From assembly GCF_000383235.1 (NCBI RefSeq), contig NZ_KB910950.1:1-55269 (forward strand): a DNA stretch of 55,269 nucleotides, given 5' to 3'. This document shows, piece after piece, positions 778-4,470 of this stretch (position 1 is its first letter; the number at the start of each line of letters is the position of its first letter). The stretch is from Bacillus sp. 123MFChir2. GTDB lineage: Bacteria; Bacillota; Bacilli; Bacillales; Bacillaceae_G. Position numbers and translations under genes: made by a program. The notes under the pieces are model-generated. The model did no database searches and had not been told where the DNA came from. It was given only the letters and a program-made list of their open reading frames with translations.

Positions 778-2541
778 ATGAAAGGGTTATTTACAGGAAG
801 ATTTGAAGGATACTCATTGGGGCACTTTCAAAAGGATCTTCTTTCAGGAACGATTGTCGGAGTTGTTGCAATTCCACTTGCTATGTCTTTTGCTATAGCT
901 TCTGGAGTTAAACCCGAGTATGGAATTTATACTACATGTATTGCTGGAATTCTTACTGCGCTATTTGGTGGTTCAAAATATCAAATAGGAGGGCCGACAG
1001 GTGCTTTTGTTCCGATTCTTTTAAGTATTGTAATTACCTATGGATATGAAAATTTATTACTGGCGGGTTTATTAGCTGGAATTCTTTTATGTTTAATGGG
1101 GATTTTTAAATTGGGATCTTTAATTAAGTTTATCCCCCGTCCTGTAACAATTGGTTTTACATCAGGTATTGCTGTTACTATTTTCACGGGACAAATTGCT
1201 GGCTTTTTAGGTTTAACCGGTATAAAAAAGCATGAGGCATTTATAGCGAATCTGAACGAAATCTTTATTCATATTGATACCATTAATTTTTATAGCATTA
1301 TAACAGCTTTCATTTGCCTTGTTGTTATACTTGTAACACCAAAAATCTTTCCCAAAGTACCTGGTTCATTAGTAGCTATTGTAATTTCAACTTTAATTGC
1401 GACGGTATTTTTCTCAGACCATGTACCGACTATCGGTACAGCATATGGTACGATACCTAATACACTTCCGCGTTTCCATGTACCAGAAATTACGTTCGAG
1501 CGCATCGAACAGCTGATGGGTCCGGCATTTGTAATTGCGATGCTCGGTGGTATTGAATCTCTTCTATCCGCTGTCGTGGCAGATGGTATGACAAATAGTA
1601 AACACAACAGTAACAAAGAACTTATTGGTCAAGGAATTGCTAATATTGTGACACCATTATTTGGAGGTATTCCAGCAACTGGAGCAATTGCTCGAACAGC
1701 AACTAATATTAAGAGCGGAGCTACTTCGCCGATATCAGGTGTTATTCATGGAATCTTTGTTTTATTAATACTTATATTATTAGCTCCATATGCTTCGCAT
1801 ATTCCACTTGCAAGTATGGCTCCCATTTTAATGGTAGTAGCTTGGAACATGAGTGAACAAAAACATTTTGCTCATATTCTTAAAATGAAGAGTGGAGATT
1901 CGCTTGTATTAGTTGTAACATTTTTGTTAACTGTATTTACAAGTTTAACAACAGCTGTAGAAATCGGTCTTATTTTAGCTATTATTTTATTTACAAAACG
2001 TATGAGCAACATGCTAGTTATATCTAAAGTACTTCCGGATCATTCGAAAAAGAATGAAAAATTGTTACCACATGTGGTAAATAAAGCTCATGATTGTCCA
2101 CAAATTAGTATTTATACAATAGAAGGTCCATTATTCTTTGGAGCCGCTCAAACATTTGAACAAAATATATTAGCAACCATTCATTATAAACCTAAGGTTT
2201 TAATATTACGAATGGGAAAAGTTCCTTTTATTGATACGACAGGAGAGTCTTACTTTAGAAGTATTGTTCATTCTTTTAAACAACAAGATGGAATACTTCT
2301 AGTCTCAGGAATTCAATCTGAACTAAAAACAACTTTAGTTAGAAATGGACTATATGATGAGATTGAGGAACAGAACTTCTTTGAGCATACAGGAGATGCA
2401 ATTAACTACGCTTTAGAACATTTAGATACGAAAAAGTGTATAGGCTGTAAACATTTTGCGTTTCGTGAATGTAGCCAACTTTCTCATCAACCTCAGAAAG
2501 TGAATACAGTAAAAGATAAAGTAAATGCATTAGATTTTTAA
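778..2541 (+). CDS. SulP-family anion permease with STAS domain
   Basis: A 587-residue inner-membrane transporter. The N-terminus carries the SulP signature (DLLSGTIVGVVAIPLAMSFA followed by SGVKPEYGIY), then about 11-12 hydrophobic segments to near residue 420. A cytoplasmic STAS domain (about 440-540) contains the FIDTTG-type loop. Family members move sulfate, bicarbonate or other anions, and the substrate cannot be read from sequence. An unusual feature is the extreme C-terminus, CIGCKHFAFREC, a C-x2-C-x8-C cluster that could bind a metal or be redox active. It lies downstream of the ArsR-family gene with no terminator between, so the two are probably co-transcribed. A strong terminator follows. 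Confidence 0.9.
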   Translation: MKGLFTGRFEGYSLGHFQKDLLSGTIVGVVAIPLAMSFAIASGVKPEYGIYTTCIAGILTALFGGSKYQIGGPTGAFVPILLSIVITYGYENLLLAGLLAGILLCLMGIFKLGSLIKFIPRPVTIGFTSGIAVTIFTGQIAGFLGLTGIKKHEAFIANLNEIFIHIDTINFYSIITAFICLVVILVTPKIFPKVPGSLVAIVISTLIATVFFSDHVPTIGTAYGTIPNTLPRFHVPEITFERIEQLMGPAFVIAMLGGIESLLSAVVADGMTNSKHNSNKELIGQGIANIVTPLFGGIPATGAIARTATNIKSGATSPISGVIHGIFVLLILILLAPYASHIPLASMAPILMVVAWNMSEQKHFAHILKMKSGDSLVLVVTFLLTVFTSLTTAVEIGLILAIILFTKRMSNMLVISKVLPDHSKKNEKLLPHVVNKAHDCPQISIYTIEGPLFFGAAQTFEQNILATIHYKPKVLILRMGKVPFIDTTGESYFRSIVHSFKQQDGILLVSGIQSELKTTLVRNGLYDEIEEQNFFEHTGDAINYALEHLDTKKCIGCKHFAFRECSQLSHQPQKVNTVKDKVNALDF

Positions 2542-2564
2542 AGAAGTAATGAATAAAAATTGTG

Positions 2565-2605
2565 AACAAGGTTGCTTATAATTATTTATAGCAACCTTGT
2601 TTTTG
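2565..2605 (+). terminator. Rho-independent terminator after the SulP gene
   Basis: Arms AACAAGGTTGCTATA and the complementary TATAGCAACCTTGTT surround a short AT loop, followed by TTTGTTT. Confidence 0.85.
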
Positions 2606-2899
2606 TTTGCATATCAGATTTTAACCGATAAAAGGTCAATTGATGAGAGCATGTTTCTAATTTAAAAAATGATTTCTCTCGAACTATTCAAACAGTAGTT
2701 TTTTAGATTTTGCAAATTGTATTCCTGCATATTGCAAGCTTGACAGAGGGAATTTTCAAAAATTTCATTTATTCATATTCCAATCCTAAAAAATACGCAT
2801 TTTGTTATGCGGAGTCTACCTCTACAATCCAAATCATAATTTTCCACTTAGATAAAAACATTTTAAATATCTCCTTTCATCGTTTTTGGGTATTTAAAA

Positions 2900-3040
2900 T
2901 TACAGATGGTTATAAAACGATATTTGACGATCTTTTACTTCGTCCACGATTTGTTGAACACGTTGTTTATGTTCAAGTTCATCTTCAGATAGACGGTTTT
3001 TTTGAATCGTTATCGTTAAAAAGAATACGTGAAATGTCAT
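2900..3040 (-). CDS. yrzI: YrzI family small protein
   Basis: A 46-residue protein, hydrophobic N-terminus (MTFHVFFLTITIQ) followed by a charged helix and the ending VKDRQISFYNHL. This arrangement is characteristic of the YrzI small proteins of Bacillus. The ATG at 3040 has a good ribosome binding site (GAAGGGAG) about 10 bases upstream, which favours this start over longer in-frame readings. The same frame stays open back through two hairpins that each contain an SD and an ATG (3157 and 3115), so N-terminally extended forms of 85 and 71 residues are formally possible. It is the last gene of a minus-strand transcript starting near 3315. Molecular function is unknown to me; the equivalent B. 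subtilis locus is, as I recall it, an mRNA encoding several very short peptides. Confidence 0.8.
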   Translation of the reverse strand: MTFHVFFLTITIQKNRLSEDELEHKQRVQQIVDEVKDRQISFYNHL

Positions 3041-3100
3041 ATTATTTTTAACTCCCTTCAAATGTGTAAAATTGTAAGAATATGAAAATCGCACAAAAAA

Positions 3101-3129
3101 GCCACAGAGAGACATAGTGCTCCTGCGGC
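3101..3129 (-). other. SD/ATG-bearing hairpin 2 in the yrzI leader
   Basis: On the minus strand the hairpin GCCGCAGGAG...CTCTGTGGC is followed by six T residues, so it has terminator form. The left arm contains a Shine-Dalgarno sequence (CAGGAG) and the loop contains ATG (3115), in frame with yrzI and encoding MSLCGFF. Confidence 0.7.
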
Positions 3130-3142
3130 AAGACATGAAAAA

Positions 3143-3172
3143 GCCACAGGAAGGCATCCGACCTCCTGTGGC
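3143..3172 (-). other. SD/ATG-bearing hairpin 1 in the yrzI leader
   Basis: On the minus strand, GCCACAGGAGG and CCTTCCTGTGGC form a strong stem followed by TTTTT. As in the neighbouring hairpin, the left arm holds the SD (AGGAGG) and the loop holds ATG (3157), giving MPSCGFF. The two hairpins are clearly related in sequence and look like a tandem duplication. Confidence 0.7.
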
Positions 3173-3203
3173 AGAATAATTTAAATCATAGTAAACGCGA
3201 TTT

Positions 3204-3278
3204 TCAATTCCCCATATGGATGGTCGAATATTTATTTGATTGTGAAACAAGTGCTACATATACAGTTACTTTCATCAT
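3204..3278 (-). CDS. 24-residue leader peptide upstream of yrzI
   Basis: A very short ORF beginning MMKVTVYVALV and ending STIHMGN, preceded by a near-perfect Shine-Dalgarno (AAAGGAGGT) at suitable spacing. It sits roughly 40 bp downstream of a strong consensus-like promoter and ahead of the two SD-bearing hairpins and yrzI. The strength of the RBS argues that it is translated. No homologue is recognised and no function can be proposed beyond a leader or small-peptide role. Confidence 0.55.
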   Translation of the reverse strand: MMKVTVYVALVSQSNKYSTIHMGN

Positions 3279-3318
3279 ATCATTCGACCTCCTTTGGAAA
3301 TTTTTTCTTATGTAAGTA

Positions 3319-3347
3319 AGTATATACAGTTGGGTTCCGTTTGTAAA
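3319..3347 (-). promoter_or_regulatory. Sigma-A promoter of the yrzI transcript
   Basis: On the minus strand, TTTACA (3347-3342) and TATACT (3324-3319) are spaced 17 bases apart, close to the sigma-A consensus. The start point would be around 3312, just upstream of the 24-residue ORF. Confidence 0.6.
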
Positions 3348-3455
3348 CCCTGAAATTTAAAAATAGGATAAATTTTTTGAATTTTGGTGAAAATAAACAA
3401 TGTTTAAAAGAGATTTCATAATGAACGACGAATAATTAGTTTGGAGAGGAATAAA

Positions 3456-3482
3456 ATGAATTTGCTTATTTTCGGAGGATGA
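3456..3482 (+). other. 8-codon leader ORF (MNLLIFGG)
   Basis: GGAGAGGAATAAA is followed by ATG and a stop after eight codons. The segment GAGGAATAAAATGAATTT recurs almost exactly at 4680-4698. It may be a leader peptide or a relic of a gene start; the evidence is weak. Confidence 0.25.
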
Positions 3483-3543
3483 ACTCTAGTTAATAAGAGT
3501 AACAGCAATTTTCAAAAAGTTGGATGGGGGTACAATTATTGTT

Positions 3544-4470
3544 ATGGCTTTTCAAACTGATTATCTTATAAAAACAGCAATTAGCACAGTACTATTTCCG
3601 TTTACAGCGGGAAATCTGTACATAAGAAAAAAGAATGAAACGAAAGAACCTGGAAGTATCGTGAAAGTCGATGGTCGCAGCGTTCATTCTATTGTTTCTG
3701 GTGAAGAAAATGGAAATCCTACTGTTATTTTAGATGCAGGTTTAAGTGGTAATTGTTTAGCCTGGTGTCTTGTCCAGCCTGAATTATCAAAGTTTACAAG
3801 AGTAGTTTCTTTTGACCGGGCTGGATATGGTTGGAGTGATACGAGAAGTGGTTTATCGACTAGTCAAGAAGTAGTGAATGATTTGAAAATGGCTTTAGAC
3901 AAAATGGGGATTTCTCCTCCTTATATTTTAGTGGGACATTCATTTGCAGGACTAAATATGCGCTTATTTGCAAGTCGATATCCTAATGAAGTAGCAGGAA
4001 TTGTATTAGTTGATGCGGTACATGAAAATCGATACTTGAAAGAGGAAATGCATACAGATAGGTCGCAGCAATACGTAAAAAGCTTAAAGCAGATGAGATT
4101 AGGATATATCACCTCTACCATTGGTTTGCCGCGCCTATTAAAAATACCGGTAGGAGGAAGAAGTCTTCCGGCGCAAGTTCAAAATCATGTAAAACACGTG
4201 GGATATACTCCTGGTGCATATGAAGCGGTTTATAAAGAAATGTTGTACAGTGAAGAATCAGCAAAACAAGTAAAACGAGCAGAAAATTTACGTGAAAACT
4301 TGCCGGTAGTTGTCATAAGTTCTAATAATTCAGATCCTATATGGAAAGAGCAGCAGCAACTTTTATGTCAACTAACGAACTGTATGAAGCATATTCAAAC
4401 AGAGAATGGTCATTCGATTCAATTAGAGAATCCAAAGGTCGTGATAAACGCTATAAAGGAATTATTATAG
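3544..4470 (+). CDS. Alpha/beta hydrolase
   Basis: A 308-residue hydrolase from the ATG at 3544 (GGGGGT upstream); a TTG eight codons earlier also keeps the frame open. A hydrophobic N-terminal stretch (about residues 8-25) may be a membrane anchor. The fold is marked by GNPTVILDAGLSG, the nucleophile elbow VGHSFAG (serine near residue 138) and the C-terminal catalytic histidine in ENGHSIQLENP. The substrate is unknown; such proteins include esterases, lipases and C-C hydrolases. It stands alone between intergenic regions, with a repeat element just downstream. Confidence 0.85.
   Translation: MAFQTDYLIKTAISTVLFPFTAGNLYIRKKNETKEPGSIVKVDGRSVHSIVSGEENGNPTVILDAGLSGNCLAWCLVQPELSKFTRVVSFDRAGYGWSDTRSGLSTSQEVVNDLKMALDKMGISPPYILVGHSFAGLNMRLFASRYPNEVAGIVLVDAVHENRYLKEEMHTDRSQQYVKSLKQMRLGYITSTIGLPRLLKIPVGGRSLPAQVQNHVKHVGYTPGAYEAVYKEMLYSEESAKQVKRAENLRENLPVVVISSNNSDPIWKEQQQLLCQLTNCMKHIQTENGHSIQLENPKVVINAIKELL

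What the first reader, a model, noticed from the sequence alone, without database searches (positions are those of the whole stretch)
3101..3172. Tandem terminator-shaped hairpins that each carry a complete SD and ATG, in frame with yrzI
On the minus strand two related stem-loops (GCCACAGGAGG... and GCCGCAGGAG...) are each followed by a T-run. In both, the left arm is a Shine-Dalgarno sequence and the loop is an ATG, followed by codons for SCGFF or LCGFF. Both frames run on into YrzI without a stop. This looks like an array in which transcription ending, translation initiation and small-peptide production are interlocked, and the duplication suggests selection for the module.
Basis: partly seen in the sequence, partly recalled or inferred. 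Interest (0 to 1): 0.72.

Follow-up and report, generated by a model that had tools for sequence, protein, structure and literature searches.

The report
Ribosome-sensing switch before yrzI
The two odd hairpins are most likely the off-switch of a widely conserved RNA sensor that lets a bacterium make the small YrzI peptides only when its ribosomes stall, and the start-codon look of the first hairpin comes from its copying the real start site upstream.

Summary
The hairpins are real (T1 3172-3143, T2 3129-3101, minus strand). The embedded starts are not conserved: SD-like plus spaced ATG in T1 of 9 of 87 leaders, T2 of 1 of 72, both only in the window. xCGFF is the terminator's 3' arm plus T-run read in frame.

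Upstream lies a 24-codon leader ORF (3278-3204). Its SD region (segment 1) pairs with segment 2 near the ORF's end; segment 2 pairs alternatively with T1's 5' side (segment 3). T1 looks like an SD-ATG because it mimics the real one. Own partners pair better than foreign ones (0 of 10000 permutations). T1's freed 3' arm can capture T2's 5' arm.

Best reading: a ribosome-mediated transcription attenuator with a relay through tandem terminators. A covariance model matches 195 of 397 genomes; hits read precede YrzI-like genes and, in some genomes, ABC transporter, acetyltransferase or RsgA-like genes. Published B. subtilis data fit: yrzI reports translation inhibition and moves with bmrCD, a proven attenuator. 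No Rfam family above threshold. The mechanism is inferred.

The parts
3319..3347 (-). Promoter-like sequence TTTACA-17-TATACT of the leader; start expected near 3312
   Evidence: 10 of 12 consensus matches, but 7 promoter-like sites found against 6.6 expected in that region; a promoter+SD pattern of this kind stands in 139 of 154 loci tried
3282..3289 (-). Segment 1: GGTCGAAT, overlaps the Shine-Dalgarno sequence of the leader ORF
   Evidence: Pairs with segment 2, -16.9 kcal/mol, z -3.8
3204..3278 (-). Leader ORF (ORF1), 24 codons, MMKVTVYVALVSQSNKYSTIHMGN
   Evidence: frame open at least 22 codons in 87 of 87 leaders against 6 and 18 in the other two frames (the script accepted only ORFs of at least 12 codons, so part of this is by construction); peptide itself poorly conserved
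3222..3229 (-). Segment 2: ATTCGACC near the end of ORF1, the shared partner of segments 1 and 3
3156..3163 (-).
   Evidence: Pairs with segment 2, -17.3 kcal/mol with flanking pairs, z -4.9, 0 of 200 shuffles
3143..3172 (-). Terminator hairpin T1 (segments 3:4), T-run 3142-3138
   Evidence: helix 3:4 covaries in 54 aligned leaders
3101..3129 (-). Terminator hairpin T2 (segments 5:6), T-run 3100-3095
   Evidence: its 5' arm can pair with the 3' arm of T1, -16.9 kcal/mol
2900..3040 (-). yrzI, 46 aa
   Evidence: TIGR02413 1.7e-23, PF09501 2.2e-22
2805..2861 (-). 18-aa ORF MFLSKWKIMIWIVEVDSA, counterpart of the small ORF that follows YrzI in relatives (..VEKDST / ..MEKDQV)
   Evidence: similar ORF found by pattern in 36 of 47 loci long enough to test, the window included
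2796..2811 (-). Terminator-like hairpin at the end of the unit

Best explanation
The region is the leader of the yrzI operon and works as a ribosome-mediated transcription attenuator. Without a ribosome, the SD of a short leader ORF (1) pairs with a segment near the ORF's end (2), terminators T1 (3:4) and T2 (5:6) form, and transcription stops before yrzI. A ribosome that translates freely runs to the ORF1 stop, covers segment 2, and termination again follows. A ribosome that is slowed or stalled early in ORF1 covers segment 1 and leaves segment 2 free. Segment 2 then captures the 5' side of T1 (3) as it leaves RNA polymerase. The freed 3' arm of T1 (4) captures the 5' arm of T2 (5), so both terminators fail and yrzI is transcribed. 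The hairpin looks like an SD-ATG because segment 3 mimics segment 1. Shown here: the conserved parts, their exclusive pairings and covariation. Inferred: the order of events, the kinetic control and the inducing signal.
For: Of 154 loci (153 fetched for a YrzI-family match, some covering the same array, plus the window), 139 carry the promoter+SD pattern; 92 are non-redundant and 87 have ORF1 plus an accepted hairpin. 1:2: median z -2.3, p<0.05 in 54 of 87. 2:3 with T1: median z -2.6, p<0.05 in 60 of 87; with T2 only 10 of 72. Own beats foreign partner, 0 of 10000 permutations, also in sets thinned to 56 and 43. Segments 1 and 2 change together (GGTCGAA/TTCGACC, GGCTGAA/TTCAGCC, GGTTGAA/TTCAACC). 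2:3 covariation score 0.114 against 0.050, 0 of 500 shuffles. Folding: no ribosome, 1:2 and terminator together in 82 of 87; ribosome on the start, before segment 4 exists, 2:3 in 81 of 87 against 33% with segment 2 shuffled. Relay 4:5: own better than foreign, 0 of 10000, 66 leaders. A leader with quite different sequence (L306, before an RsgA-like gene) keeps the logic: 1:2 p 0.01, 2:3 CTACATGACC/GGTCATGTAG, 0 of 500. Literature: a yrzI fusion is listed as reporter for inhibition of protein synthesis (PMC7604286 table); yrzI and bmrCD mRNAs rise on tRNA-maturase depletion (PMC10100781) and in a whiA mutant (PMC10714963); discrete 234-nt RNA yrzI-yrhG (PMC3574147 table) against a predicted 224 (T1) or 265 nt (T2) in B. 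inaquosorum; 301-nt 5'UTR of yrzI in B. licheniformis (PMC3871023 table) against a predicted 286-287 in L113/L114, presumed close relatives; bmrB attenuator shown by experiment (PMC4191407).
Against: At full length the terminator is more stable: with the start region blocked, 2:3 survives in only 7 of 87 and 3:4 forms in 81, so control would have to be kinetic. The same holds for the relay in the window: T2 wins once its 3' arm exists (-18.6 against -17.6 kcal/mol). 1:2 is not significant in 33 of 87 (several are B. subtilis-type leaders), and six leaders do not form 2:3. With segment 2 shuffled, 1:2 still forms in 47% of foldings. The number of pairs changed on both sides is not above shuffles for 2:3 (4 against 3.4, 220 of 500) and only weakly for 1:2 (3 against 1.7, 48 of 500); the +1 slide of 2:3 scores nearly as high (0.111). 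In six leaders (B. licheniformis-type) T2, not T1, is the partner. Foreign T1/T2 arms also pair well (mean -12.1 against own -14.4), and matching arms could come from duplication. Relatedness of the sequences inflates the tests. No expression data were analysed; cereus-group relatives could not be compared.
Confidence: 0.78

Rival explanations
1. One reading: ribosomes start at the ATGs inside T1 and T2 and make N-terminally extended YrzI or small xCGFF peptides; start and stop of transcription and translation share one module.
For: Both ATGs have an SD-like sequence, share the yrzI frame, and the frame is open.
Against: Not conserved: SD+ATG in T1 9 of 87, T2 1 of 72; of these ten sites, in frame and open only in the window (two) and L233, with L207 undetermined. 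In a folded hairpin the SD is paired. YrzI has its own SD and the family model starts at the yrzI ATG.
Confidence: 0.06
2. Plain tandem terminators between two small genes (ORF1 and yrzI), with constitutive leaky read-through; segment pairings only tune ORF1 translation.
For: Terminator folds are strong; a discrete short RNA is known; 1:2 would hide the SD of ORF1.
Against: The pairing of segment 2 with T1 but mostly not T2, beyond shuffles and foreign partners, is unexplained; yrzI responds to translation inhibition.
Confidence: 0.12
3. The leader is mainly a trans-acting small RNA or peptide gene; the 234-nt RNA acts elsewhere and yrzI is a by-product.
For: The yrzI-yrhG RNA is listed among Hfq-associated RNAs of B. 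subtilis (PMC3574147 table) and was called sRNA (PMC4634765 passage).
Against: The leader layout is found in cis before different genes with terminator/antiterminator logic; ORF1 peptide not conserved while its frame is.
Confidence: 0.04

Closest known systems
bmrB leader of bmrCD in B. subtilis (ribosome-mediated transcription attenuation, PMC4191407: abstract and passages seen)
   Same: Short leader ORF, terminator, alternative antiterminator, response to ribosome-targeting drugs; here also an SD:ORF-end helix, p<0.05 in 4 of 6 leaders upstream of BmrC-like genes, two of the four nearly identical, and small ORFs between leader and exporter gene.
   Different: In the paper the terminator lies inside the bmrB ORF; in yrzI leaders ORF1 usually ends before T1 (median 28 nt), two terminators are usual (69 of 87 have two, 3 have three), and the arms allow a relay. 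The yrzI attenuator itself is untested.
trp-type attenuators (recalled)
   Same: Segments 1:2, 2:3, 3:4 with mutually exclusive pairing and a leader peptide.
   Different: Segment 1 is the SD of the leader ORF, so the no-ribosome state also closes the leader's own start; no run of one codon was noticed by eye in the ORF1 peptides.
yrzI-S1025 operon and Rae1 (passages in PMC11780869 and PMC10632193; Leroy 2017 not held)
   Same: Same YrzI family and a following small ORF with an E-K-D end in most relatives where it was found.
   Different: The passages seen concern mRNA cleavage and decay; the window ORF reads VEVD, not VEKD, and cleavage was not tested.

Membership tests
Ribosome-mediated transcription attenuator | Translated short leader ORF upstream of a terminator | tested here: met
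   ORF with SD in 87 of 87 analysed leaders, frame kept; translation itself not shown
Ribosome-mediated transcription attenuator | Intrinsic terminator before the structural gene | tested here: met
   Hairpin plus T-run accepted in 87 of 92 non-redundant leaders; 3:4 covaries
Ribosome-mediated transcription attenuator | Antiterminator that excludes the terminator and includes part of the ORF region | tested here: met
   2:3 with T1 in 60 of 87 at p<0.05, with any hairpin 66 of 87; own versus foreign 0 of 10000; prediction only
Ribosome-mediated transcription attenuator | Read-through depends on leader translation | not testable with these tools
   Needs reporter mutants
Ribosome-mediated transcription attenuator | Induction by stalled translation | not tested
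   Literature only, for B. subtilis yrzI
YrzI family (TIGR02413) | Score above curated cut-off | tested here: met
   82.5 against 47.05 bits
Rfam families (T-box, riboswitches, other leaders) | Match to a covariance model | tested here: not met
   No match for window 2300-3800 at E up to 1; for 8 relatives one match at E up to 0.1, below its gathering score, to a plastid 3'UTR family
Rae1 substrate (S1025-like ORF) | Cleavage in the ORF | not testable with these tools
   Only ORF similarity by pattern, 36 of 47

The most novel reading that the evidence does not exclude
This leader is one large, undescribed class of ribosome-stall sensors in Bacillales that uses a terminator arm mimicking the leader's own SD and a domino of tandem terminators (2:3 frees 4, 4:5 disarms 5:6). 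It would define a regulon of YrzI peptides, Rae1-target peptides, ABC exporters, an acetyltransferase and an RsgA-like ribosome GTPase that is switched on whenever translation slows.
Probability: 0.4. Interest if true: 0.72.

Novelty: new variant of a known kind. Interest (0 to 1): 0.6.

Why it matters
It gives a concrete, testable mechanism for an old observation, that yrzI reports inhibition of protein synthesis. It ties yrzI to bmrCD, which appears beside it in rae1, whiA and tRNA-maturase data. It also suggests that tandem terminators can be disarmed in series by one ribosome-controlled decision. The class is common (195 of 397 genomes), has no Rfam 15 family among the sequences tested, and in some genomes precedes ABC transporter, acetyltransferase or RsgA-like genes.

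Tried and rejected
Rfam leader or riboswitch: none above threshold. YrzI on plasmids or phages: no match at E 1e-3. Exact 18-base T1 pattern in viral contigs: none. Neighbour hydrolase as a query in genome contigs: no relative; a pyrophosphatase-like query reached Bacillales but nothing close to the window. Conserved leader peptide: rejected, only the frame and the segment-2 codons are kept. A TTAC-N2..5-GTAA palindrome after the -10 is in 39 of 87, not pursued. Thermodynamic, non-kinetic switching: not supported. I first took leader-model hit L306 for chance; a check showed the same pairing logic before an RsgA-like gene. L307 still looks like chance (weak score, no leader ORF seen).

Rows dropped: 15 of 154 loci had no promoter+SD pattern; 47 of 139 were redundant; L153, L179-L182 had no accepted hairpin; alignments A1 and A2 used 54 of 87, chosen by TTCG[AG]CC in segment 2 and T1 as partner, so A1 understates variation; A3 used 44 of those 54, chosen by hand for alignability; the relay test used 66 of the 72 leaders with two or more hairpins. 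Relatives were picked because they match the YrzI family.

Novelty searches. No listed title, start of abstract or read passage described a yrzI attenuator. Hutter 2004 and Leroy 2017 were not read, and neither was a later Rae1-bmrCD paper that I recall.

Full report
What is there. On the minus strand the window holds a compact unit: a promoter-like sequence (3347-3319), a 24-codon ORF1 with a strong SD (3278-3204), hairpin T1 (3172-3143) and hairpin T2 (3129-3101), each followed by a T-run, then yrzI (3040-2900), an 18-aa ORF (2861-2805) and a last terminator-like hairpin (2811-2796). YrzI is a clear member of TIGR02413 and PF09501. T1 and T2 fold better than shuffles (z -3.9 and -3.2).

Relatives. 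No genome is held for the window and no close relative turned up in the genome collection. YrzI-family searches reached other Bacillales: 6 of 8 genomes reached through named loci (E up to 0.01), 5 of 19 in one family (0.01), 44 of 44 in the genus of B. inaquosorum (0.001) and 143 of 397 in the order (1e-5; 45 above the curated cut-off). Together with the window, 154 oriented loci were examined, some covering the same array; 139 carry a promoter followed by an SD. After removing redundancy 92 remained, and 87 of these had ORF1 and at least one accepted hairpin. Fifteen have one hairpin by the script's criteria, 69 two and 3 three.

An SD-like 5' side followed by a properly spaced ATG occurs in T1 of 9 of 87 leaders and T2 of 1 of 72. 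Only the window has both. For GTG or TTG it is 20 of 87 and 12 of 72. The yrzI frame runs open back to T1 in 16 of the 80 leaders in which the yrzI start was located. The xCGFF peptides come from the terminator's 3' arm and T-run (TGYGGN+TTT in 52 of 87 T1). So the embedded starts are not a conserved feature.

The switch. The SD region of ORF1 (segment 1, GGTCGAAT at 3289-3282) is complementary to segment 2 (ATTCGACC at 3229-3222), which lies near the end of ORF1: in the window -16.9 kcal/mol, z -3.8. The 5' side and loop of T1 (segment 3, GGTCGGAT at 3163-3156) is complementary to the same segment 2: -17.3 kcal/mol, z -4.9. Segment 3 therefore resembles segment 1: 15 of 17 bases agree between 3171-3155 and 3297-3281 (88%). 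This is why T1 looks like an SD and a start codon. T2's SD and ATG have no such explanation and no counterpart in relatives.

Conservation of the pairings. Across 87 leaders 1:2 has median z -2.3 and p<0.05 in 54; 2:3 with T1 has median z -2.6 and p<0.05 in 60, while T2 reaches this in 10 of 72. Each set of own partners beats foreign partners (0 of 10000 permutations for both helices; the same in sets thinned to 56 and 43 leaders). Segments 1 and 2 change together between groups. In 54 aligned leaders 3:4 covaries strongly (33 cells changed on both sides, 0 of 500 shuffles), 2:3 clearly by cells (24, 0 of 500) though not by number of changed pairs (220 of 500), and 1:2 modestly (14 cells, 1 of 500; changed pairs 48 of 500; these 54 were chosen for a conserved segment 2). 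Relatedness inflates such tests. The slid controls in the same calls score lower, but for 2:3 the +1 slide comes close (0.111 against 0.114).

Logic. Folding with parts blocked gives the expected states: no ribosome, 1:2 together with the terminator in 82 of 87; ribosome on the ORF1 start, before segment 4 exists, 2:3 in 81 of 87; ribosome at the ORF1 stop, terminator in 85 of 87. With segment 2 shuffled in place, 1:2 forms in 47% and 2:3 in 33% of foldings. At full length the terminator wins in 81 of 87 even with the start blocked, so the switch would have to be kinetic, as is usual for attenuators (recalled). ORF1 keeps its frame (at least 22 codons in 87 of 87, ORFs of 12 or more being required; other frames 6 and 18) but not its peptide, as expected if the act of translation is what counts.

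Two terminators. A 2:3 helix alone would leave T2 intact. The 3' arm of T1 can pair with the 5' arm of T2 (window -16.9 kcal/mol). Own arms pair better than foreign (mean -14.4 against -12.1; 0 of 10000; 66 leaders, also in 37 thinned). With T1's 5' side removed, this pairing forms before T2's 3' arm exists in 65 of 66. I read this as a relay that disarms both terminators in series. Duplication of T1 into T2 could produce the same similarity, and once T2 is complete its hairpin is the more stable in the window, so this step is the least certain.

Distribution. A covariance model of 1:2 plus 3:4 (R1) matches 195 of 397 genomes at E<=1e-3. Twenty hits were then read: 17 from genomes without a listed YrzI match, and all 17 are followed, by eye, by YrzI-like small ORFs, often with a VEKD-type small ORF; and 3 second hits, all before an ABC ATPase gene. 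In 15 further genomes chosen for having more than one hit, 20 loci were read: six precede YrzI-like ORFs, six the same ABC ATPase, five a protein starting MEVLNT (an acetyltransferase domain in the one scanned, L297), one a multidrug-type ABC exporter (L303), one (L306) an RsgA-like GTPase (TIGR00157 above cut-off), and one (L307) looks like chance. One of the six YrzI loci (L304) has the order leader, YrzI, small ORF, ABC exporter. L306 keeps the pairing logic with different letters: 1:2 p 0.01, 2:3 0 of 500 shuffles. Leaders upstream of BmrC-like genes also show SD:ORF-end pairing, p<0.05 in 4 of 6. The name BmrC is by recall and resemblance.

Literature. yrzI is listed as a luciferase reporter for inhibition of protein synthesis (PMC7604286 table, passage). 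yrzI and bmrCD mRNAs rise on RNase P or Z depletion (PMC10100781, passages) and in a whiA mutant (PMC10714963, table). S1024-S1026, yrzI, bmrC, bmrD and bglC are the Rae1 target candidates named in PMC10632193 (passage). A 234-nt RNA between yrzI and yrhG is listed among Hfq-associated RNAs (PMC3574147, table); I predict 224 nt to T1 and 265 nt to T2 in B. inaquosorum. B. licheniformis has a 301-nt 5'UTR before yrzI (PMC3871023, table). bmrCD is a ribosome-mediated attenuator shown by experiment (PMC4191407, abstract and passages). None of these passages describes an attenuator for yrzI.

Verdict. Best reading: a ribosome-mediated attenuator, related in layout to bmrB, with an SD-mimicking terminator arm and a probable relay through tandem terminators.

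Noticed in passing
window 2861-2805 (-): An 18-aa ORF MFLSKWKIMIWIVEVDSA follows yrzI; relatives have similar ORFs, many ending VEKDST or MEKDQV (found in 36 of 47), resembling the Rae1 target S1025 of B. subtilis (identity of S1025 recalled).
   Followed up: partly
L304 and L309 (genome G414): Leader, YrzI, small ORF and a multidrug-type ABC exporter gene stand in one row, joining the yrzI and bmrCD layouts.
   Followed up: partly
L306 (genome G286): A leader ORF with SD, segment 2 and terminator of quite different sequence but the same 1:2 and 2:3 logic precedes an RsgA-like ribosome GTPase gene.
   Followed up: partly
L279-L281, L293, L295, L296, L298, L299, L305: A leader of the same layout precedes an ABC ATPase gene (drrA-like by best NCBIfam score for L280, below cut-off).
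   Followed up: partly
L294, L297, L300-L302: Weaker matches of the leader model precede a protein starting MEVLNT; L297 has a GNAT acetyltransferase domain.
   Followed up: partly
Just downstream of the -10 in leaders, e.g. L081: A palindrome TTAC-N2..5-GTAA is present in 39 of 87 leaders, a possible operator or 5' hairpin; its role was not examined.
   Followed up: no
L085 and L094 loci: YrzI-family matches stand in tandem arrays: five in Ectobacillus antri (G003) and four in a relative (G011) at E up to 0.01.
   Followed up: no
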